Source: Candidatus Mycobacterium wuenschmannii (GTDB lineage: Bacteria > Actinomycetota > Actinomycetes > Mycobacteriales > Mycobacteriaceae). From it: DNA of 64,000 bases. This document shows, one piece after another, positions 53,508 through 61,641 of this stretch. The stretch lies in the NCBI RefSeq assembly GCF_030252325.1, contig NZ_CP126981.1, positions 3,534,001 through 3,598,000 of the forward strand, written 5' to 3'. Below the pieces are notes generated by a model. The model saw only the letters and a program-made list of their open reading frames with translations. It had not been told where the DNA came from and did no database searches. Each line of letters starts with the position of its first letter. The stretch's first letter is position 1. The translations under genes and the position numbers were made by a program.

Positions 53508-55001
53508 TTATCCTCCGGCCGCGGCGTTGGGTTCTGGAACGGGCGCGACGGCCCCGCCCCCGGTGACGGTGTCGCGCGCGAGCAGCGCGCTGTCATGGCT
53601 GATGGCCGGCCCGGCCGCGAACGTGCGGACGATGGGCCAGGGGGCCTGCACGGCGCTGCCCACGTCGAGCCCGAGCGGCTCAAGGGTCTTGCGGTCCCAC
53701 TGCACGCCGAACCGAACACCTTGCGGCGACAGCCAATACAGGCTCTCGCGGCTACCCGAGCTGGCAACACCGCTGGTGGTCGCGACGAAGTTGGCCGCAC
53801 CGGGCAGCACGAGGGCCTGGTCGGCCTCGACGGATTCCGGCGCACGGTCGTCGCGCACCAGGCGCACCAGGCGCTGATCCATTCCGATCGGCACCGGCAG
53901 ACCGCGGCCGCTGATGATGTTGATCGTGGCCTGCGGGTCGGTGGTCTGCTTCTGCCAACCCACGCACGTCACCGGATTGGCCGCGGTGTCAACGAAATTC
54001 AGCTTGCCCGATGGATAGAACCCGACGTTGAGAACGTCGACCGCGGGAATGTGGATCAACTTGTCCGGCGAGATGAGTGTCGGCGTTGCGGAGGCCTGGG
54101 CCGTCGCGGTGCGCAGCAGGTCTGCGACGAAGCTGGTGATCTTCTGCACTCCGTCGGGCAGCAACACATAGAAGCCGGTGACGGTGCCGTTGGCGTCGCG
54201 CGTCTCCAGCACGGCGCCCACGGGCGACCCGGGGAGCCAGGTCGATGGCGTCCCCAGATCCGGGATCGCCGGAATGATCAGGGGTTCGGTGGCCGGCATC
54301 GCGTCGAAGAGCGCATTGGATATCTCGATCGGGTAGGTGAGCCCCGGATCCAATCCCAGGTTGAAGGTGACCGATCGGTCGGCGGGGTCGATCTGCGACC
54401 GCTGCCCACCCCACACCACGTAGGTCGCGCCCTTGTGGGTGACCAGGATCGCCTGGTTCCGCTGCATCGGCGCGGCCCGGCCGTCCTTCGCGAGTTCGCC
54501 GGCGATCGAGGTCACCAACGGCAACGTCCCGGTGCCCCGGGCGGGCGCGGTGTCGCACACCGACCATGCCGAGACCGAACTCGCGGTGATCGGAAGACTG
54601 TCCGGCACACCGGGAATGCCGACGATCGGGCCGGTCGGATACTTGGCGATCTCGGACGCCTTGACCCATGTCGGCGCCGCGTTGGCGCCCACCACCAAGC
54701 GCGCCGAGGTCAGATTCAGCGCCGGGTAGAGCCGGCCGTTGACCTTGGCGTAGACGGCCCCGGTGTCGCGGTTGCCGATGATCGAGGACTGCCCAACCAG
54801 ACCGGCCGGCTTCATCACGTGCAGCAGCGCCATCCAGCCGATGCCGATCAGCACGAACACCATCGACAACGCTACCGCCGCTTGCTGTTTGCGGTCGTCA
54901 TGCTTCATCCGCACGGAGAACCGGGTGATCGCGGCCTTCAGCCGGCGGTTGTAGAACAGGTGCCCCGAGTTCTGGTCGCGGTTGGAGAGATTGAGTGGCA
55001 C
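53508..55001 (-). CDS. eccB2: ESX-2 membrane component EccB2
   Basis: A 497-residue protein (M. tuberculosis EccB2, 495). A short cytosolic N-terminus (LSNRDQNSGHLFYNRRLKAA) and one membrane helix at about 43-65 precede a large periplasmic domain with the repeat units R1-R4, including paired cysteines (VCDTAPAR and VTCVGWQ). EccB dimers join the membrane complexes in the periplasm. GTG start, with GAAGGA 10 bases upstream. First of the core secretion genes. Confidence 0.95.
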   Translation of the reverse strand: MPLNLSNRDQNSGHLFYNRRLKAAITRFSVRMKHDDRKQQAAVALSMVFVLIGIGWMALLHVMKPAGLVGQSSIIGNRDTGAVYAKVNGRLYPALNLTSARLVVGANAAPTWVKASEIAKYPTGPIVGIPGVPDSLPITASSVSAWSVCDTAPARGTGTLPLVTSIAGELAKDGRAAPMQRNQAILVTHKGATYVVWGGQRSQIDPADRSVTFNLGLDPGLTYPIEISNALFDAMPATEPLIIPAIPDLGTPSTWLPGSPVGAVLETRDANGTVTGFYVLLPDGVQKITSFVADLLRTATAQASATPTLISPDKLIHIPAVDVLNVGFYPSGKLNFVDTAANPVTCVGWQKQTTDPQATINIISGRGLPVPIGMDQRLVRLVRDDRAPESVEADQALVLPGAANFVATTSGVASSGSRESLYWLSPQGVRFGVQWDRKTLEPLGLDVGSAVQAPWPIVRTFAAGPAISHDSALLARDTVTGGGAVAPVPEPNAAAGG

Positions 55002-55040: not shown

Positions 55041-55367
55041 TCACTGCAGGGCTCCGCCGTAGCCGTAGCGGGCCTGGTTCTCCGACTCGGCCTCGTCGCG
55101 CAGGGCTGCGACGGCGAGGTTCAACCGGTCGGCGAGCTCCCCATGGCTGTAGCCGGACATCACGCTCGGGTGCAACGACAGGTCGACCAGCCGCCCGTCG
55201 GCGTTCGCGACCGCGTGAATGTCGCCGAGATCGACGCTGTAAGTGACCGATTCGGCCTGCCCGACGAGGGCCTCCCACTTGTCAGCGGCGTCGTTCAACT
55301 CGCGCAGCACCGACTCCACGAGATCCTTGTCGCTGAGCTGCGCGCGACTACCCGGCCCCGGCATCAT
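55041..55367 (-). CDS. YbaB/EbfC-like small protein in ESX-2 locus
   Basis: A 108-residue protein with the YbaB/EbfC layout: an N-terminal helix (LSDKDLVESVLRELNDAADKWEALVGQAES), a beta-strand core (VTYSVDLGDIHAVANADGRLVDLSL) and a C-terminal helix (HGELADRLNLAVAALRDEAES). The same fold is seen in EspL of ESX-1. EspL-type proteins stabilise secreted partners in the cytosol; the role here is inferred. It lies between the DUF5632-like gene and eccB2 on the same strand. Confidence 0.75.
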   Translation of the reverse strand: MMPGPGSRAQLSDKDLVESVLRELNDAADKWEALVGQAESVTYSVDLGDIHAVANADGRLVDLSLHPSVMSGYSHGELADRLNLAVAALRDEAESENQARYGYGGALQ

Positions 55368-55407: not shown

Positions 55408-57024
55408 TCACGGGCCGGCCTTCCATCCGCTGGCCGGCGGTGAACTGAGCAGTTGGAACCAGGCGAAGTGGTAGTTCGCGAGCACGTTGTTCTTGGTGGC
55501 GATCCCCTCGGTCGCCGCCAGCAGTAGGCAGTTCAGCAACAACCCCGGGTCGACGTCCGGGTACTGCGCGAGCAGTTGATATCGCGACGTGTCGAGGTAG
55601 ACGCGCAGGATGTCGATCTCGGCATCGACGATGCCGGTGCCCGCGGCCCCCGCCCTGGCCAACGTGTTGACCATCCGTGGCAGCCCGTCGCGCCAGTGGG
55701 TCGCCTCGCCGAGCACCCAGCCGAGATCGTCGACCGGCGGAAGTTCGCGCGGTCGCGACGAGGTGTCGGTGACTTCGTAGTCCATCGCCCACCCGAGCGG
55801 GTCGCCCGGCGCGTAGGTGGCCACCAAGGTCGTCTGGCCGAGCAGCGTCGCCGCGGTGCCCTTGCGCCGACCCGGCTCCAGCAGTTGGACGTCGGTGGGC
55901 AGCTTCAGGCCGGGCGGTATCCAGCCGTGGGCGAGGTCGGTCACCAGCAGCGTGCTGCCGTCCTCGCGCAGGCCGACCGCCCACCGCAGTCCGGGTTCCT
56001 GGCGCGCGACGAACTTGAGCTGCCGCTCCAGCCGGTCGCGATCCGACTCCGACGGCTCGGCGGCCGCGGCGGGTTCGATGACCGGCAGGTGCCGGCTGGC
56101 CTCGGCCTCGTCGATCACCGGCTGCGGCGCGGGTGGCGGCGGTTCGATCGGCGGTTGTGTCAGCGGTGCGATCTCCTGCAGCAGCGACGAGAGTTCCTCG
56201 AGCACCTCGGTGTCGTCGGAGTCGAACGCGTGCTTGGGGGTCGACTGTTCCGGATCCAGTTGCACGACAGCGGGTTCCGGCTCAGATTCCGGTTCGGCTT
56301 CCGGCTCGGGCTCGAGCTCGGTCTCGACATCCGGCTCAGGCTCGTATTCCGGCTCAGGCTCCGGTTCGGGCTCGGATGGCGCGAACTCGGGCGCCGCTGC
56401 CGGGACGGCGGCCTCCGCGAGGGGCTCCCACCGCCGCGTCAGCTCCTCTGGTTCGGGCGACTCGAGGGACTCCCAGGGATCGAACGGCTCGTACTTCTGG
56501 TGCCTGGCCTCGGCAGGCTCCGGGGCAGGCGGAGCGGGCGCCACTTCGGGCTCCACGATCGGTATTTCAACGGTCGGCTCGGGATCCTGTTTCGGCGGAG
56601 CGAGTTTGAATCGCGCCGTTTTCTCCGTCTCGTCGACGCCATTTACCGGGCGGTGCTCCGGCGGCAATTTCGATTTCAAGGAATGGAGGTGCCGAACGGT
56701 CGACTCGACCCGGCGCACCGCAAAGGCGCGGGCGTCGTTGATCACTCGCGCTTCTTCCGCCTGCCGGGTCGAATCGACCAGCCCCGCGCAGCGAATGTTC
56801 TTGAGTTCCTCGTTCGCCGAATTGACGATTCGTTGGAGGTCGGCCTTCAGATACTTGACGAGCGGGGCGGTCTCGGCCGTCACCATGGACAGTTCCGCAG
56901 GCCAGAGGCCTCCCGTGATCCACGGGGTGGCATCGACCGGGGACTTGAACGCCGGGATCTTCAGCGATTCCTGGGCAGCCCTCCGGAGGCGCTGACGCGC
57001 CGTATTCCGTCCGAAGATCGCCAC
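55408..57024 (-). CDS. ESX-2-associated DUF5632/DUF5631-like protein (Rv3899c-like)
   Basis: A 538-residue protein. The N-terminal 130 residues are helical. The middle (about 150-330) is disordered, Pro- and Glu-rich, with EPEPEPEPEYEPEP-type repeats near 218-257. The C-terminal 200 residues contain the RQLKFVARQEPGLRWAVGLREDGSTLLVTDLAHGWIPP segment and the QLLAQYPDVDPGLLLNCLLLAATEG helix that resemble Rv3899c. The start is GTG; TACGCT lies six bases upstream. Probably cytosolic partner or substrate; function unknown. Confidence 0.82.
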   Translation of the reverse strand: MAIFGRNTARQRLRRAAQESLKIPAFKSPVDATPWITGGLWPAELSMVTAETAPLVKYLKADLQRIVNSANEELKNIRCAGLVDSTRQAEEARVINDARAFAVRRVESTVRHLHSLKSKLPPEHRPVNGVDETEKTARFKLAPPKQDPEPTVEIPIVEPEVAPAPPAPEPAEARHQKYEPFDPWESLESPEPEELTRRWEPLAEAAVPAAAPEFAPSEPEPEPEPEYEPEPDVETELEPEPEAEPESEPEPAVVQLDPEQSTPKHAFDSDDTEVLEELSSLLQEIAPLTQPPIEPPPPAPQPVIDEAEASRHLPVIEPAAAAEPSESDRDRLERQLKFVARQEPGLRWAVGLREDGSTLLVTDLAHGWIPPGLKLPTDVQLLEPGRRKGTAATLLGQTTLVATYAPGDPLGWAMDYEVTDTSSRPRELPPVDDLGWVLGEATHWRDGLPRMVNTLARAGAAGTGIVDAEIDILRVYLDTSRYQLLAQYPDVDPGLLLNCLLLAATEGIATKNNVLANYHFAWFQLLSSPPASGWKAGP

Positions 57025-57126: not shown

Positions 57127-57270
57127 ATGGCTGATACAGGGCTTCAGCAGCAGTTGAATGAGGTGCGCGCGCTACTGAGCCAGGCGCGAGAGTTGTTCGG
57201 CGCCAACCCCGTCGAGCCGCCCGCTGATATTGCCCCGGAGCGCGACGCGGTCCAGACCTGGGTTCGCTAG
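57127..57270 (+). CDS. Leaderless 47-aa helical peptide
   Basis: A 47-residue protein: MADTGLQQQLNEVRALLSQA, then RELFGANPVEPPADIA, then PERDAVQTWVR. The N-terminal half would be an amphipathic helix; the rest is Pro/acidic. A consensus-spaced promoter ends six bases upstream and codon third positions are mostly G or C, both supporting a gene. It runs opposite to all its neighbours and ends one base before the end of the DUF2694-like gene. No family recognised; a regulator or small partner of the ESX-2 accessory genes is a guess. Confidence 0.6.
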   Translation: MADTGLQQQLNEVRALLSQARELFGANPVEPPADIAPERDAVQTWVR

Positions 57271-57585
57271 TTAGCGGTCCGTTTCGTCGCGGCGCGGTAG
57301 CTCGTGGGCGACCAATCTTTCGATCGCCACGTCAAGATCATCGGCGGTAGGAACCTCGGCGGACGGGGTGTATCCCGCGGCGACAATCTCACCCCGAACC
57401 TCCATTACCGCCTTGAGATACGAGACATCGGCGGTCAGCAGAATGCCCTCGGTCAGGCTGTCCGCATCGGTGTGCATCGCGGCTTCGGTCAGCGTCACAC
57501 TGTGCATGTATCCGCCGCGGCATGAGCGGACCAGAATGTGCCCGCTTGGATGAACGGTGTCGAACGCGGGATCGGCCTCGGTCAT
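57271..57585 (-). CDS. DUF2694-like protein
   Basis: A 104-residue protein beginning MTEADPAFDTVHPSGHILVRS, with a compact beta-rich first half (RGGYMHSVTLTEAAMHTDADSLTEGILLTADVSYLKAVMEVR) and a helical end. It resembles the DUF2694 protein Rv3612c of the espACD locus. The ATG overlaps the stop of the EspC-like gene (ATGA). The pairing of DUF2580 and DUF2694 genes echoes espACD, so a role in chaperoning or exporting ESX substrates is possible but unproven. Confidence 0.7.
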   Translation of the reverse strand: MTEADPAFDTVHPSGHILVRSCRGGYMHSVTLTEAAMHTDADSLTEGILLTADVSYLKAVMEVRGEIVAAGYTPSAEVPTADDLDVAIERLVAHELPRRDETDR

Positions 57586-57899
57586 CGACCGTCGTCGGAG
57601 ATGCGCTCAATTTGTTGGGCGGCTGCCGCGTCGTGCTCTTCCCACATGCCGGCCGATTTTGTCAGGTCGTCCGCGATCTGCGCGTGATTGTCGGCCTGTT
57701 GCTCGTAGCAGAGCCGGCGCTGCTCGAGCAGCTCCCGGCCGGCTTCGCGGAGGTCACCAAAGATCGGGCCGAGCGAGTCCAGGCTCTGCTGAATGGCCTC
57801 GTGCGACGACGGGAGCGCGCGCAGGTACTCCGACGTCTCTTGGTGATGGCCGGCCGCCTGCCGCAAATGCGCCGGCACCACATGGATTCGGTCTGCCAT
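57582..57899 (-). CDS. EspC/EspF-like (DUF2580) protein
   Basis: A 105-residue helical hairpin, close in length to EspC (103). It begins MADRIHVVPAHLRQAAGHH, the usual DUF2580 opening (IxVxPxxLxxxAxxH), and ends with a long second helix. EspC is a type VII substrate that assembles on the outer cell surface and is needed for ESX-1 function. AGAAGGAGA lies 7 bases before the ATG. Adjacent to ESX-2, it is a strong candidate ESX-2 substrate. Confidence 0.78.
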   Translation of the reverse strand: MADRIHVVPAHLRQAAGHHQETSEYLRALPSSHEAIQQSLDSLGPIFGDLREAGRELLEQRRLCYEQQADNHAQIADDLTKSAGMWEEHDAAAAQQIERISDDGR

Positions 57900-57941
57900 C
57901 CGCTCTCTCCTTCTGACGTTCCGGCGCGGGCCGGGCTGCTT

Positions 57942-59078
57942 CTACGCTGTCTCGGGTCTGTCGACGGTTGCCGGCCTGGTGGGCGCGGGTGGATCGGTAG
58001 CGGCCGGCGCGGACGCGTTGACCGGCACCGGCGGGTGCTCCCAGCCTAGGAACGTCGGGCCGCTGACGGTAGAAGTGTGCTGAATCTGCCCGTTGACCAG
58101 CGCCCGGCTCTCGCCGAGGGCGAGCGCGTGCCGGTCGGTGAATATGCCGACGTCGCCGGGCACCAACCGCGCCGGGTCCAGCGGCTCGCCGACCGGAGTG
58201 CCGGGGGCGGGAATGGTGATGCCCTCGTGGCGGAAGGCGTCGGCGATCGGGGTTCCGGCCGCGGCGGCTTCGATGACCGCGGCAAGCTGCGGGGACGCGG
58301 CGGTCAACGTCTCGCCGTTGGGCAGCGTCACGGTGGTCGGTCCGGATGCGGGTTCATCCGGCTTGGACTCGTGGCCCTCGTCGTCGGAGACGAGTTGGTT
58401 GTCGGGCTCCTCGGCATCGAACGCCGCGTCATCGAGGGTGGCAGGCTCTTCGGGCAGGGCGGACGGCAGCGGAAGCCCACCGGGAAGTCCGAAGCCGCCC
58501 CCACTCGGCACCCCTCCCCCACCGAACGACGGCATGCTGGGCATCCCGGCCGGCACCGGCGCGGACGCCGGCGCTCCGGGGGCCTCCTCGGGCGGCATGC
58601 CGTAGTCGTCGTCGGGGAACTCGTCCGTCAGTGAATCCGGCGCAAAATTCGGTGGGGCCGTGTGGCTTTCGGTGGAGCTCGACTTGGCCGCGGGCTCGGC
58701 GTCGGGCTGGGAAGAGTTGTACAGCGACGTCCAGGCCGCCATCAGCGCCGAGTTCGACACGTCGTCGAGGCTTGCCCCGGCAACGACGGCCTGGATGTCA
58801 CGCAGCTTGCCGATCAGGTAGCGCTGGAAGTCGCGCGCACCTGCGGGGGTGTCCAGATCCGACCGCGCCGCGACGGCGCCCTCGATGTCGCGCTGCAGGG
58901 CGTCCAGGGCTTCCCTACTGGCGGCGGCCTTCTGATGCGCGTTCAGCACCGCGGTCACGACTTGCAGATCGACCTGTGCTGTCGACGAATTCTGATGTGC
59001 CAGAGCGATTTCCGCGCTCCGAATGGCCTCGGCCGCGGCGCCTTCTTGATGGTCGGCGGAGGACGCATCGTCGGGCAT
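57942..59078 (-). CDS. Helical-repeat protein A with Pro/Gly linker (Rv0026-like)
   Basis: A 378-residue protein. Residues 15-130 are helical (DUF4226-like) and include LDALQRDIEGAVAARSDLDTPAGARDFQRYL. A Pro/Gly/Ser-rich linker (about 140-220) follows, then an acidic stretch and a C-terminal domain containing TVTLPNGETLTAASPQLAAVIEAAAAG and PARLVPGDVGIFTDRHALALG. No Sec signal. The ATG at 59078 has TACTGT seven bases upstream, a leaderless arrangement. The next gene is a paralogue of the helical part. M. tuberculosis Rv0025/Rv0026 are the likely relatives. Confidence 0.78.
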   Translation of the reverse strand: MPDDASSADHQEGAAAEAIRSAEIALAHQNSSTAQVDLQVVTAVLNAHQKAAASREALDALQRDIEGAVAARSDLDTPAGARDFQRYLIGKLRDIQAVVAGASLDDVSNSALMAAWTSLYNSSQPDAEPAAKSSSTESHTAPPNFAPDSLTDEFPDDDYGMPPEEAPGAPASAPVPAGMPSMPSFGGGGVPSGGGFGLPGGLPLPSALPEEPATLDDAAFDAEEPDNQLVSDDEGHESKPDEPASGPTTVTLPNGETLTAASPQLAAVIEAAAAGTPIADAFRHEGITIPAPGTPVGEPLDPARLVPGDVGIFTDRHALALGESRALVNGQIQHTSTVSGPTFLGWEHPPVPVNASAPAATDPPAPTRPATVDRPETA

Positions 59079-59085
59079 GGTGGGG

Positions 59086-59091
59086 ACAGTA
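59086..59091 (-). promoter_or_regulatory. Candidate -10 box of helical protein A
   Basis: TACTGT on the minus strand ends seven bases before the ATG at 59078, so the gene may be transcribed apart from the genes upstream of it. Confidence 0.45.
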
Positions 59092-59115
59092 GCCACGGCC
59101 GTCGGCGCCGACAAT

Positions 59116-59505
59116 TCAGTCCTGTGCAGGAGCGGTGTAGTGCTCACGCAACCCGTCCAATTTCGCGGCGGCCGCGCCGGCGAGGTCGCGCGCGTGTGCC
59201 ACCACCGCACCGATCTCGTGCTGCTTGGTGAGCAGGAACTTCTGGAACTCCCGCGCACCCATCGCCGTATCGAGCGCAAGGGCGGCCTGGTTGGCGACGG
59301 CGCCGTCGATGTCGGCGGCAATGGCGTCGAGGCGCTGGGTCGCCTCGACAGTTGCCGCGTGGGCGGCGGCGAGCGCTTCGGTGAGAGCCCGGTCGGCATC
59401 GGATGACGCCGCGTGGCGTGCCGACAGCGCCGCCTGACCGGCCTCGCTCGCCTCGATCGAGCCGCCGGCCTGTCCGGCCGCTCCCTGTCCCTGCGCGTCG
59501 GCCAT
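59116..59505 (-). CDS. Helical protein B (Rv0025-like paralogue)
   Basis: A 129-residue soluble helical protein. It shares with the next gene downstream the segment LDAIAADIDGAVA...LDTAMGAREFQKFLLTKQHEIGAVVAHA, against LDALQRDIEGAVA...LDTPAGARDFQRYLIGKLRDIQAVVAGA, so the two are paralogues. No signal peptide or membrane helix. It starts six bases after the stop of the NlpC/P60 gene, so it is in the same operon as that gene and the XRE regulator. Confidence 0.78.
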   Translation of the reverse strand: MADAQGQGAAGQAGGSIEASEAGQAALSARHAASSDADRALTEALAAAHAATVEATQRLDAIAADIDGAVANQAALALDTAMGAREFQKFLLTKQHEIGAVVAHARDLAGAAAAKLDGLREHYTAPAQD

Positions 59506-59510
59506 CGTCG

Positions 59511-60329
59511 CTACCCCACCGGTCGCCGGATCTGCACCCCGGTGCCGAGCGGGCTGATGCGCACGGTCGCACCGGGTTCGGGCGCCTCGATGACGAGGTT
59601 GTTGCCGATCGCCAATTGGACGTGATCCGCCGTCGGGAAGACCAGATCGCCAGGGCGGACCTGTGCGCGCGGAATCGGGATACCGTCGTAGATCTGCTGA
59701 TATGTGGTGCGGTCCAAGTGAATTCCGGCCTTCGCGTAGGACCACTGGGTCAACCCGGAACAGTCGAACTGATCGGGGCCGGTCGCTCCCCAGACGTAGG
59801 GACGGCCCAGCCGCGACAGCGCGGCCCGCACCGCGATCCCCGCTCGGCTGCTGGGCGGCGGCAGGCGTAGGCCGTGGTGGCGCACCCGATAGCGGACTGG
59901 CCGCCACCGCGAGCGGTGCCTACGCGATCGGCGACGGGCCGCCAGCACATGGGCGTGCTGAGCGCGCAGCCGCGCGGTCCGGCGGCGCATCGCCTCACGC
60001 TGTGCGAGGGGGGTATCCGGCACCGCGTTGTCGGCCCGCGCCTCGTCGAGCACGGCTCTAGTCAGCGCCTGCGCGGCCGCGTGGTCCCGGCGCGCTGCAT
60101 GGGCGGTGGCGGCCACCTCGGCGTCGACGCTCGCGGCCGCCCGCAGGTCGTCCCGGCTGCGGTCGACCACCGCGCGGTAATATGCCTGTCCCCCAGCGCT
60201 ATTCAGGTCCGCAGCCCGAGCCAGCAGTCGATCGTAGGGTGCCAGCCGCGCGTCGAACGATGCCTCCCGGGTGTTCCCCGCGAACAGTTCGTGAGCGTGG
60301 CGCAGTGCCGCCACGTCATCTCCGGTCAC
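59511..60329 (-). CDS. NlpC/P60 peptidoglycan hydrolase without Sec signal (Rv0024-like)
   Basis: A 272-residue protein. The N-terminal 130 residues are helical and Ala-rich, then an Arg-rich stretch (AARRRSRRHRSRWRPVRYRVRHH). The C-terminal NlpC/P60 domain has the catalytic Cys in DQFDCSGLTQWSYAKAG and His in ADHVQLAIGNN, with GRPYVWGATGP before it. It would cut peptide stems of peptidoglycan. The N-terminus has no Sec signal, which suggests another export route, possibly type VII. The GTG start overlaps the XRE stop (GTGA). Confidence 0.88.
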   Translation of the reverse strand: MTGDDVAALRHAHELFAGNTREASFDARLAPYDRLLARAADLNSAGGQAYYRAVVDRSRDDLRAAASVDAEVAATAHAARRDHAAAQALTRAVLDEARADNAVPDTPLAQREAMRRRTARLRAQHAHVLAARRRSRRHRSRWRPVRYRVRHHGLRLPPPSSRAGIAVRAALSRLGRPYVWGATGPDQFDCSGLTQWSYAKAGIHLDRTTYQQIYDGIPIPRAQVRPGDLVFPTADHVQLAIGNNLVIEAPEPGATVRISPLGTGVQIRRPVG

Positions 60330-61081
60330 TGCTGCTCTCCCTCGGTCGACTCGGTGAATGCCCGGACCCGGGGGAGAGCGCCCGGCGGGATGACTCCTCT
60401 GTTGCGGATGTCCCACAACTCTGCGCCGGTGACCCCGAGCATTCCCGCGATCACGGCGTCGGGGAGGGCCGAGCGCACGCAGGCCCGGTCGAGTCGCGCG
60501 CTCAGGCTCGCCGGCACGCGCTCCAGGAGGTCGCCGCGGGCGCTTTCCAGCTGCTCGAGATGCTGCATGAGTCGACCGGCGGACTCGGCATCGGCACCGG
60601 CCGCGAGGCGCCAGGAGTCGGCTGCCAGCATCTCGGCCCGCACGCACTGTTCGATCACAGAAAGAATATACGACTCATATTCGTTTGATGTATTCGCCGG
60701 CGCTCGCTCGATCGCCGATTTGATGGCATCGAGCTGTGCTTCGGAGGATCGCTCCAGCACCGCGGTGTCGGTGTTGTGCCGTACTACGACGACCGGTCCA
60801 TCGGACCTTACCGGGATCGGTTCGGCCGGCCGCGGCGCGGTCAGGCGCTCGAGTTCGGCGGCGGAATCGGCCGCCACGACGAGCCGCGAGTAGGTGCCGG
60901 TCGGCAGGCCCAGACCGTTTTCCACCTTTTGAACTGTGCCTTTGTGCGGCTTGCGCGCGCCCCGCTCGAGATAGCTCAGGCCCATGATGCTGACGCCGGT
61001 GACCGAGGCGAAGTCGGCGAGGGACCAGTTGCGCGACTCGCGAAGCTCTCGAATCGCTGCGCCCGCCGATTCACGGCTCAT
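60326..61081 (-). CDS. XRE-family regulator (Rv0023-like)
   Basis: A 251-residue DNA-binding protein. Residues 8-65 are a helix-turn-helix (AIRELRESRNWSLADFASVTGVSIMGLSYLERG). The rest is helical and may dimerise or sense a signal. M. tuberculosis Rv0023 has the same length (256) and position, upstream of the NlpC/P60 gene and divergent from whiB5. A palindrome just before its start is a likely autoregulatory site. It heads an operon with the NlpC/P60 gene and helical protein B. Confidence 0.88.
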   Translation of the reverse strand: MSRESAGAAIRELRESRNWSLADFASVTGVSIMGLSYLERGARKPHKGTVQKVENGLGLPTGTYSRLVVAADSAAELERLTAPRPAEPIPVRSDGPVVVVRHNTDTAVLERSSEAQLDAIKSAIERAPANTSNEYESYILSVIEQCVRAEMLAADSWRLAAGADAESAGRLMQHLEQLESARGDLLERVPASLSARLDRACVRSALPDAVIAGMLGVTGAELWDIRNRGVIPPGALPRVRAFTESTEGEQQ

Positions 61082-61096
61082 CGCAGCGTTCCGGCC

Positions 61097-61108
61097 ATAT
61101 CCGGATAT
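61097..61108. promoter_or_regulatory. 12-bp palindrome between XRE and WhiB5-like genes
   Basis: ATATCCGGATAT is a perfect palindrome 16 bases upstream of the XRE start. It overlaps TAATAT (minus strand, 61105-61110), a probable -10 box of that gene, so binding there would block transcription. Confidence 0.55.
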
Positions 61109-61136
61109 TACACAGCGCGACCGAACCGCCTCGGCA

Positions 61137-61194
61137 TATATGTTTTTGTCTCGCTTCCCTTGCGGACGCGGGTCTGGTGTGTATATGTTTCTGT
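61137..61194 (+). repeat. Paired TATATGTTT repeats in the WhiB5-like promoter
   Basis: TATATGTTTTTGT at 61137-61149 and TATATGTTTCTGT at 61182-61194 are direct repeats 45 bases apart in the divergent promoter region. They may be binding sites of the XRE or WhiB-type regulator, or overlapping promoters. Confidence 0.5.
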
Positions 61195-61224
61195 ATACGT
61201 TTTAGAACCGAAGGAGGCGGACCA

Positions 61225-61641
61225 ATGGGTCACCCGTGCTCAGTCAACCCGGAGATGTGGTTCGGCTACGCCGACGACGATGGCGGCGACGGTGCCGCCA
61301 AGGCTCGTGCCTATGAACAGTCGGCCACCGAGGCGCGGTTGCTGTGCCTCCGCCGGTGCCCGCTGGCTCAGCAGCGTCTGTGCGCCCGCTACGCCGTCGA
61401 GAACCGCGAAGAGTATGGCGTGTGGGCCGGGGTGAAATTGCCCGGCGGCCAGTACCGCAAGCGCGAGCAGCTCGCCGAGGCGCACGCCACTCTGCGCAAG
61501 ATCGCCGCGGGGGAGATCAGCCCGCGACAGTTGGCCGACAATGCCACACTGCTCGCGCGGCGCGAGAACGATGCCGCTCCGGTCACCGCCACGGTGTTCC
61601 ACCTGCCCATGCGCGAGGTCGGGCCGCGCTCCGCGGCGTGA
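61225..61641 (+). CDS. whiB5: WhiB-family iron-sulphur regulator, WhiB5-like
   Basis: A 138-residue protein (M. tuberculosis WhiB5, 139). Four conserved cysteines: C5, C41, C45 and C53, followed by the GVWAGVKLPG turn (beta-turn of the WhiB fold) and basic residues that bind DNA. The Cys spacing is CxxxC-x7-C, wider than the common CxxC-x5-C of WhiB proteins. AAGGAGG lies eight bases before the ATG. Divergent from the XRE regulator, as Rv0022c is from Rv0023. WhiB5 has been linked to regulation of ESX genes in M. tuberculosis. Confidence 0.9.
   Translation: MGHPCSVNPEMWFGYADDDGGDGAAKARAYEQSATEARLLCLRRCPLAQQRLCARYAVENREEYGVWAGVKLPGGQYRKREQLAEAHATLRKIAAGEISPRQLADNATLLARRENDAAPVTATVFHLPMREVGPRSAA

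What the first reader, a model, noticed from the sequence alone, without database searches (positions are those of the whole stretch)
57127..61641. Candidate ESX-2 accessory export module: XRE, NlpC/P60, two helical paralogues, EspC-like, DUF2694, peptide and WhiB5
Seen: these genes abut the ESX-2 operon head, with overlapping ATGA/GTGA junctions in two places. The NlpC/P60 enzyme lacks a Sec signal and the EspC-like protein has the DUF2580 opening. Known: the M. tuberculosis relatives (Rv0022c-Rv0026) lie apart from ESX-2. Inference: the juxtaposition suggests that the helical proteins, EspC-like protein and cell-wall hydrolase are substrates or partners of ESX-2, switched by the XRE and WhiB5-like regulators.
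Basis: partly seen in the sequence, partly recalled or inferred. Interest (0 to 1): 0.8.

Follow-up and report, generated by a model that had tools for sequence, protein, structure and literature searches.

The report
Wall-cutting gene cassette heading ESX-2
Next to a mycobacterial protein-secretion machine sits a conserved set of genes that probably make wall-cutting and wall-binding proteins plus helpers for that machine; the pairing recurs in many species and on plasmids, though the set also survives where the machine has been lost.

Summary
The genes are there as described, and the juxtaposition is no one-genome accident. Among 198 genus genomes, all 90 with EccB2 carry the cassette marker DUF2694: 0.6-6.2 kb upstream on the same strand in 31, opposite strand of the same contig in 24, another contig in 35. 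Order is kept in 62 of 63 complete cassettes.

New here: a DUF4226-like N-domain seems shared by a stand-alone protein, the NlpC/P60 hydrolase, an SLT transglycosylase beside eccB2 in other species, and a protein ending in a cysteine-less NlpC/P60-like fold. Similar cassettes lie with T7SS genes on six of seven plasmids opened. I read it as a wall-remodelling and Esp accessory cassette of ESX-2-type systems.

Against ESX-2 as sole exporter: 14 of 104 cassette genomes lack EccB2; in the ten read the cassette is intact and under purifying selection. The YxxxD/E motif is not enriched. ESX-2 also comes in two displaced types; M. tuberculosis appears to have the other. Export is inferred, not shown.

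The parts
61225..61641 (+). WhiB5-like regulator
   Evidence: PF02467 E 1.8e-10; present in 64 of 66 module loci; the two without (G041, G174) start inside the cassette at the contig or stretch end
61137..61204 (+). three XRE-type operator candidates (61137 TATATGTTTTT, 61182 TATATGTTTCT, 61194 TATACGTTTTA)
   Evidence: resemble the Rv0023 sites of PMC7020754; with the pattern TATAYGYTTYH, 87 of 92 whiB5-XRE intergenic regions hold at least one (some genomes twice), 6 others in 1.57 Mb
60326..61081 (-). XRE regulator, Rv0023-like
   Evidence: HTH_3 E 5.4e-10
59511..60329 (-). NlpC/P60 endopeptidase with a helical-hairpin N-domain related to DUF4226; Cys190/His236/Glu248
   Evidence: (triad invariant in 33 of 33); GTGA overlap with XRE
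59116..59505 (-). stand-alone DUF4226 protein
   Evidence: PF10774 E 7.8e-30
57942..59078 (-). DUF4226 domain + disordered linker + NlpC/P60-like domain without cysteine
   Evidence: PF10774 E 6.1e-37; model; VIA-align
57582..57899 (-). EspC-family protein
   Evidence: PF10824 E 2.8e-26
57271..57585 (-). DUF2694 protein; ATGA overlap with the EspC-like gene
   Evidence: PF10904 E 3.2e-52
57127..57270 (+). conserved 47-aa protein, apparently leaderless (-10 TAGCGT), opposite strand
   Evidence: 101 homologues; TANNNT at 6-7 nt before the start in 96 of 96 loci versus 7 of 572 random RTG; dN/dS 0-0.33 in 11 pairs
55408..57024 (-). EspK-like protein (DUF5632 + DUF5631), head of the ESX-2 operon
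   Evidence: PDB 5imu E 6.2e-36
55041..55367 (-).
   Evidence: PF10921 E 1e-49; PF02575 E 4.9e-5, below its cut-off
53508..55001 (-). eccB2
   Evidence: TIGR03919
49420..53505 (-). eccC2
   Evidence: TIGR03924 and TIGR03925
38491..49001 (-). rest of ESX-2: PPE, two small Esx-sized ORFs, EspG, MinD/ParA-like ATPase, EccD, a mycosin-like frame, EccE, EccA
   Evidence: the two small ORFs and the mycosin are named from position and translation only

Best explanation
The block is an accessory cassette of ESX-2-type type VII secretion. It has a wall-acting set linked by a DUF4226-like helical domain (NlpC/P60 endopeptidase; stand-alone DUF4226 protein; DUF4226 plus a cysteine-less, RipD-like NlpC/P60 domain likely to bind peptidoglycan), an EspC-like/DUF2694 pair, and an EspK-like/EspL-like pair that heads the ecc operon. 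Proposed working: the XRE protein holds down whiB5, and perhaps its own operon, through TATAYGYTTYH sites; on induction the DUF4226 proteins are brought to a T7SS by their helical domain, alone or in pairs, are exported, and bind and cut peptidoglycan around the channel so that the secretion machine and its EspC-type substrate can pass the wall. Shown here: gene content, conservation, domain relations, intact catalytic residues, recurrence with T7SS genes on plasmids. Inferred: export, the exporter, the place and purpose of cutting, and the regulatory effect on ESX-2.
Confidence: 0.5

Rival explanations
1. The cassette serves whichever ESX is present, above all ESX-4 (present with ESX-3 even in the poorest genome); its link to ESX-2 is ancestral, from a plasmid-like ESX locus, and not exclusive.
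For: G053 keeps cassette, EspK-like and EspL-like genes with only two EccB loci: one with EccA and PPE (ESX-3-like), one without (ESX-4-like). A passage of PMC3796483 states that SigM and WhiB5 regulate both ESX-2 and ESX-4 in M. tuberculosis.
Against: None of the three ESX-4-like stretches read (L204, L207, L210; about 13 kb each) has a cassette gene; ESX-4 is thought to be near universal (recalled), so co-occurrence says little.
Confidence: 0.25
2. A wall-remodelling operon under XRE/WhiB5 control that now has no secretion role; adjacency to ESX-2 is left over from an old integration event.
For: Intact persistence after losses of ESX-2; in six genomes read (G004, G009, G098, G136, G168, G172) the cassette is apart from EspK-EspL-EccB2.
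Against: No Sec-like segment in the hydrolase; EspC-family and DUF2694 genes inside it; similar cassettes with other T7SSs on plasmids.
Confidence: 0.15
3. The DUF4226 proteins are antibacterial or contact-dependent effectors (LXG-like logic: shared helical N-domain, variable C-domains) delivered by the T7SS, with a small partner as immunity protein.
For: Related N-domains on NlpC, SLT and other C-domains; at L214 two hydrolases share a near-identical N-terminal half.
Against: The C-domains seen are few and conserved across species, unlike polymorphic toxins; one member has lost the catalytic cysteine; no exported immunity candidate identified.
Confidence: 0.07

Closest known systems
EssH, dedicated cell-wall hydrolase of the S. 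aureus T7SSb (PMC13059805; start of abstract and passages seen)
   Same: peptidoglycan hydrolase encoded with a T7SS
   Different: EssH has a CHAP domain and belongs to T7SSb; here NlpC/P60 (and SLT elsewhere), a DUF4226-like N-domain, T7SSa, need for secretion untested
NLP/P60 hydrolases of plasmid-borne mycobacterial T7SS (Ummels 2014, as cited in a passage of PMC13059805; the paper itself was not held)
   Same: NlpC/P60 genes inside a T7SS cluster
   Different: window cassette is chromosomal, tied to ESX-2 and to an XRE/WhiB5 pair
M. tuberculosis Rv0022c-Rv0024 and Rv0029 (passages of PMC7020754 and PMC9811218); Rv0025-Rv0028 and Rv0030 as counterparts are recalled, not compared here
   Same: whiB5, XRE and NlpC order, similar XRE sites, EspK-fold relative
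   Different: there not beside ESX-2, whose Rv3899c is of the type-B EspK
ESX-1 espA/espC/espD, espE/espF/espH and espK/espL/espB sets (recalled)
   Same: EspC-family plus EspK/EspL-type genes beside a T7SS
   Different: no wall hydrolase or XRE/WhiB5 pair there (recalled)
RipD, non-catalytic NlpC/P60 (PDB 4jxb)
   Same: NlpC/P60-like fold without active cysteine
   Different: here fused to DUF4226 by a long disordered linker

Membership tests
ESX-2 locus accessory genes | conserved physical linkage to ecc2 genes | tested here: met
   of 55 genomes with both on one contig, 31 have it on the same strand within 6.3 kb and 24 on opposite strands, five of these directly beside an inverted operon (G016, G022, G069, G073, G174), the rest 61 kb or more apart or across the contig ends
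ESX-2 locus accessory genes | cassette lost when ESX-2 is lost | tested here: not met
   14 of 104 cassette genomes lack EccB2 at E 1e-150; intact under purifying selection in the ten read; four drafts not read
T7SS secreted substrates | YxxxD/E general secretion signal | tested here: not met
   0/85, 3/60, 2/84, 1/81, 1/21 distinct sequences, below shuffled rates of 0.13-0.29
T7SS secreted substrates | EspC-family domain | tested here: met
   PF10824 E 2.8e-26
T7SS secreted substrates | ESX-dependent export | not testable with these tools
   needs a secretome
NlpC/P60 (C40) endopeptidase | Cys-His-third polar residue | tested here: met
   C190, H236, E248 in 33 of 33; FDCSG in 91 of 91 and HVQ in 90 of 91 orthologues; naming the triad by analogy to RipA is recalled
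Rip-type secreted endopeptidase | Sec signal peptide | tested here: not met
   no hydrophobic segment; no signal-peptide predictor was available
EspK family | DUF5632/DUF5631 C-terminal domains | tested here: met
   PF18646 and PF18645; 5imu E 6.2e-36
DUF4226 domain on the window's NlpC protein | Pfam gathering score | tested here: inconclusive
   no hit for the window protein; the homologous plasmid hydrolase N-domain passes and aligns to the NlpC N-domain profile at 98.4%; direct profile match only 38%
NlpC/P60 fold in DUF4226-b C-domain | structural match to NlpC/P60 entries | tested here: inconclusive
EssH-like dedicated T7SS hydrolase | CHAP domain | tested here: not met
   only PF00877 found for the hydrolase

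The most novel reading that the evidence does not exclude
DUF4226 is a T7SS address domain, working without the YxxxD/E signal, that loads peptidoglycan cutters (NlpC/P60, SLT, lysozyme-like) and a wall-binding pseudo-enzyme onto ESX-2 and plasmid ESX machines, so that these systems cut their own way through the mycobacterial wall; the M. tuberculosis Rv0022c-Rv0030 block would then be the orphaned head of an ESX-2 whose core was displaced by a different ESX-2.
Probability: 0.3. Interest if true: 0.8.

Novelty: new variant of a known kind. Interest (0 to 1): 0.62.

Why it matters
How type VII systems of mycobacteria get through peptidoglycan, and what ESX-2 does, are open questions. The cassette names specific, testable wall hydrolases and a candidate export domain, and it recasts a block of little-known M. 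tuberculosis genes as a candidate ESX-2-derived unit. It also warns that 'ESX-2' covers two displaced versions, so results from one species may not carry over.

Tried and rejected
First rpoB tree had nine rows on the wrong strand and is discarded; one search replaces it. My first split of EccB2 at 66% identity put G175, G072 and G182 in type B; the tree places them with type A, so type B is 18 rows, not 21. The script printed the clade test and then failed at drawing the tree. A two-site XRE pattern found nothing in the own genome, but as written it could not match the window's own sites (first gap 34 bases, third site ends in A), so that negative says nothing. Foldseek of the DUF4226-b model against PDB gave no match at E 0.001. 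The N-domain of the NlpC model matches BAR domains and PPE proteins only at the level of helical bundles; not used as evidence. M. branderi's plasmid shows no cassette within 9 kb of its EccB; its DUF4226 hit lies about 35 kb away. The own genome's second hit to the N-domain (E 0.5) was dropped, as were eight genomes with weak DUF2694 hits only. Considered and rejected: that the 47-aa ORF is spurious (conserved length, purifying selection, promoter); that adjacency is an assembly artefact (many single-contig genomes). On holding the report against the calls I lowered the novel case from 0.33 to 0.30, because most plasmid hydrolases have no Pfam DUF4226 hit. Literature searches: DUF4226 (none), at least two of DUF2694, DUF2580 and ESX-2 (none), Rv3899c with ESX-2 (one), Rv0024-Rv0026/whiB5 (two), ESX-2 with whiB5 (five), Rv3896c (one; the passages seen hold nothing on this cassette), ESX-2 evolution (20 listed), plasmid hydrolases (one), T7SS with lytic transglycosylase (nine), NlpC with ESX (two). 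The library is open-access only, so 'not in print' is not claimed.
Full report
WHAT IS THERE. The window is G000:C1:3534001-3598000 of a 5.10 Mb single-contig mycobacterium. All genes of the finding are present at the stated coordinates. PMC9811218 (passage seen) reports that the EspK C-terminal domain resembles Rv3899c (PDB 5IMU, next to ESX-2), Rv0029 and Rv2082. That EspL is a YbaB-like gene next to espK in ESX-1 is recalled.

IS THE NEIGHBOURHOOD MORE THAN CHANCE. In 198 genomes of the genus (unnamed, drawn evenly), 112 match DUF2694; 8 of these have weak hits only (E 2e-7 to 4e-4) and were dropped, leaving 104. EccB2 at E 1e-150 is found in 90; all 90 are among the 104. In 55 of the 90, both genes lie on one contig: 31 on the same strand, DUF2694 604-6237 bp upstream; 24 on opposite strands; the other 35 are multi-contig assemblies with the two on different contigs. 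I fetched 66 of the 104 cassette loci: the core order NlpC, DUF4226-b, EspC-like, DUF2694, opposite-strand 47-aa gene holds in 62 of the 63 with all five; WhiB5 and XRE are present in 64 of 66 and on opposite strands in all 64, the pair being flipped in 5. The stand-alone DUF4226 gene is missing or not separable in 10 of 66. Thirty GTDB loci fetched with the EspC-like protein all show the neighbouring DUF4226-b, DUF2694 and 47-aa genes, with EccB2 inside the fetched stretch in 19 of 30; they were chosen by that protein, so they are not a neutral sample. Related species are not independent observations: the counts show conservation, not a number of events.

TWO ESX-2 TYPES. EccB2 identity to the window's falls mostly at 66-83% (type A) or 62-65% (type B), while DUF2694 identity does not follow this split (G029: DUF2694 80%, EccB2 64%; G084: 61% and 72%). 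In an EccB tree of 69 rows the 18 type-B rows group together (90/79). In an rpoB tree of 60 genomes (10 of the 18 type-B genomes; rpoB coordinates of the other 8 fell in the cut part of the listing) type B does not form one clade (p-AU 3e-88), and forcing a 16-genome rpoB clade on a 34-row EccB set is rejected (p-AU 2.9e-43, quick tree). One gene each is a thin basis, but the conflict is strong: the transporter has been exchanged or differentially lost while the cassette stayed. In all 18 type-B genomes the type-A-like EspK stays beside the cassette (EspL too in 16), while the displaced ESX-2 has its own EspK (about 40% identity) within the fetched stretch in 12 of 18. The 5IMU sequence is nearly identical to the type-B EspK of G105 (E 3e-134 over 222 residues). 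Hence, by inference, M. tuberculosis has a type-B ESX-2, and Rv0022c-Rv0030 (some of these names recalled) is the head of an older ESX-2 locus. PMC11237670 (passages seen) already reports divergent, split ESX-2 in M. decipiens and M. riyadhense, and PMC6616192 (passages seen) a split ESX-2 in M. paragordonae and an ESX-2-like plasmid locus; the passages do not mention this cassette. In six genomes (G004, G009, G098, G136, G168, G172) EspK and EspL lie with EccB2 away from the cassette, and the 47-aa gene stayed with the cassette.

RESULT AGAINST STRICT ESX-2 DEPENDENCE. Fourteen of 104 cassette genomes have no EccB2 at that threshold. Ten were read (G030, G089, G126 and G148, all drafts, were not): WhiB5, XRE, NlpC, DUF4226-b, EspC-like, DUF2694 and the small gene are open in all ten, and dN/dS is 0.03-0.45 in the eight pairs that include them, among these two pairs (G053/G151, G101/G181) where both members lack ESX-2. 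EspL was not found beside the cassette of G134. Remnants of eccA2 next to EspK/EspL in G053, G151 and G184 and of eccA2 and eccB2 in G101 and G181 show that ESX-2 was there and was deleted. G053 has two EccB genes, one with EccA and a PPE gene nearby and one without (ESX-3-like and ESX-4-like by context). The window's own genome has four EccB genes: ESX-2, and by context ESX-3-, ESX-5- and ESX-4-like ones; no ESX-1-like one was seen.

PLASMIDS. Of 72,556 plasmid records, 55 encode a DUF4226-b relative (54 by the C-domain, one by the N-domain), all Mycobacteriaceae; 100 encode an EccB, of which 60 were listed, and 52 of the 55 are among those 60 by eye; the other three (M. ulcerans) are not among the rows shown. 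Of seven plasmids opened, six have the DUF4226 gene in a T7SS gene neighbourhood: DUF4226-SLT-C40-eccB (L216), DUF4226-SLT-hypothetical-eccB (L220), C40-DUF4226-EspC-DUF2694-PPE-EspL-like, with eccC some 4-6 kb further on (L217, L218), DUF4226-EspC-DUF2694-hypothetical-YbaB upstream of eccB (L219), DUF4226-EspC-DUF2694-DUF2710-DUF4226/hydrolase-eccB (L221). EspL-like is sub-threshold on L217. The seventh (L223, M. branderi) has none within 9 kb of its EccB. Hydrolases on L216 and L220 have no Pfam DUF4226 hit and those on L217 sub-threshold ones. A further trio lies upstream of a divergent eccB in G151 (L214); its DUF4226 protein passes Pfam and begins with a glycine-rich hydrophobic stretch, its SLT and NlpC proteins have no DUF4226 hit. 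That NLP/P60 genes occur in plasmid T7SS clusters is already in print (Ummels 2014 as cited in PMC13059805).

REGULATION AND THE SMALL GENE. PMC7020754 (passages seen) reports that Rv0023 binds TATAcgtTTTT and TATAcgcTTTT upstream of whiB5 and negatively regulates it. TATAYGYTTYH sites are in 87 of 92 whiB5-XRE intergenic regions here (63 with two, 21 one, 3 three; some genomes counted twice), often about 45 bp apart, and in 6 other places of 1.57 Mb. Regulation of ESX-2 and ESX-4 by WhiB5 and SigM is stated in PMC3796483; PMC10714837 did not see the expected effect in one strain (passages seen of both). The 47-aa gene has TANNNT 6-7 nt before its start in 96 of 96 loci (80 distinct proteins) against 7 of 572 random starts, and the EspK-like gene in 63 of 101, which suggests leaderless transcripts and a promoter for the ESX-2 operon at EspK, apart from the cassette's own. 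Its function is unknown to me; position suggests a regulator or small partner.

HOW IT WORKS, AND HOW SURE. I commit to a T7SS accessory cassette that cuts and binds peptidoglycan for the machine (0.5). The strongest support is the double recurrence, chromosome and plasmid, of DUF4226 proteins and wall-acting domains plus EspC, DUF2694 and EspL types with ecc genes. The weakest steps are export (YxxxD/E not enriched in any of the five groups tested), the DUF4226 link of the hydrolase, and the exporter's identity. Heterodimers in which only one partner carries the signal are known for T7SS (recalled), so absence of the motif does not exclude export, but I identified no partner with the motif.

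NOVELTY. The kind (hydrolase in a T7SS cluster) is known from EssH and from plasmid T7SS loci; the chromosomal ESX-2 cassette with DUF4226-type proteins, a cysteine-less NlpC-like partner and an XRE/WhiB5 switch is a new variant.

Noticed in passing
57127-57270: 47-aa protein, length kept in 77 of 96 loci, with a conserved leaderless-type promoter; where named in public data it is 'hypothetical protein' in most rows, no Pfam.
   Followed up: partly
L015 and L016: M. numidiamassiliense contig holds two identical-looking copies of cassette plus ESX-2 head in opposite orientation, the fetched stretches about 16.5 kb apart; inverted duplication or assembly artefact.
   Followed up: no
G029:C1:4587306-4599687: Seven full or partial DUF5631 (EspK-type) hits clustered near the type-B ESX-2 (ten in the genome).
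   Followed up: no
L061, L062, L065, L073, L095: XRE/WhiB5 pair flipped so that WhiB5 reads into the cassette; 5 of 64 loci.
   Followed up: no
L067: G076 shows signs of decay: DUF4226-b and EccC2 in pieces, EccB2 partial, EspL not found.
   Followed up: no
L041, L043, L048 and others: Several type-A loci have eccB2-eccC2-PPE but no EspG2 hit in the rest of the fetched stretch, in line with the split ESX-2 of PMC11237670.
   Followed up: partly
own genome: Four EccB genes, none in an ESX-1-like context.
   Followed up: partly
L214:3633-5897: Two neighbouring hydrolases (SLT and NlpC/P60) share an almost identical N-terminal half upstream of a divergent EccB.
   Followed up: partly
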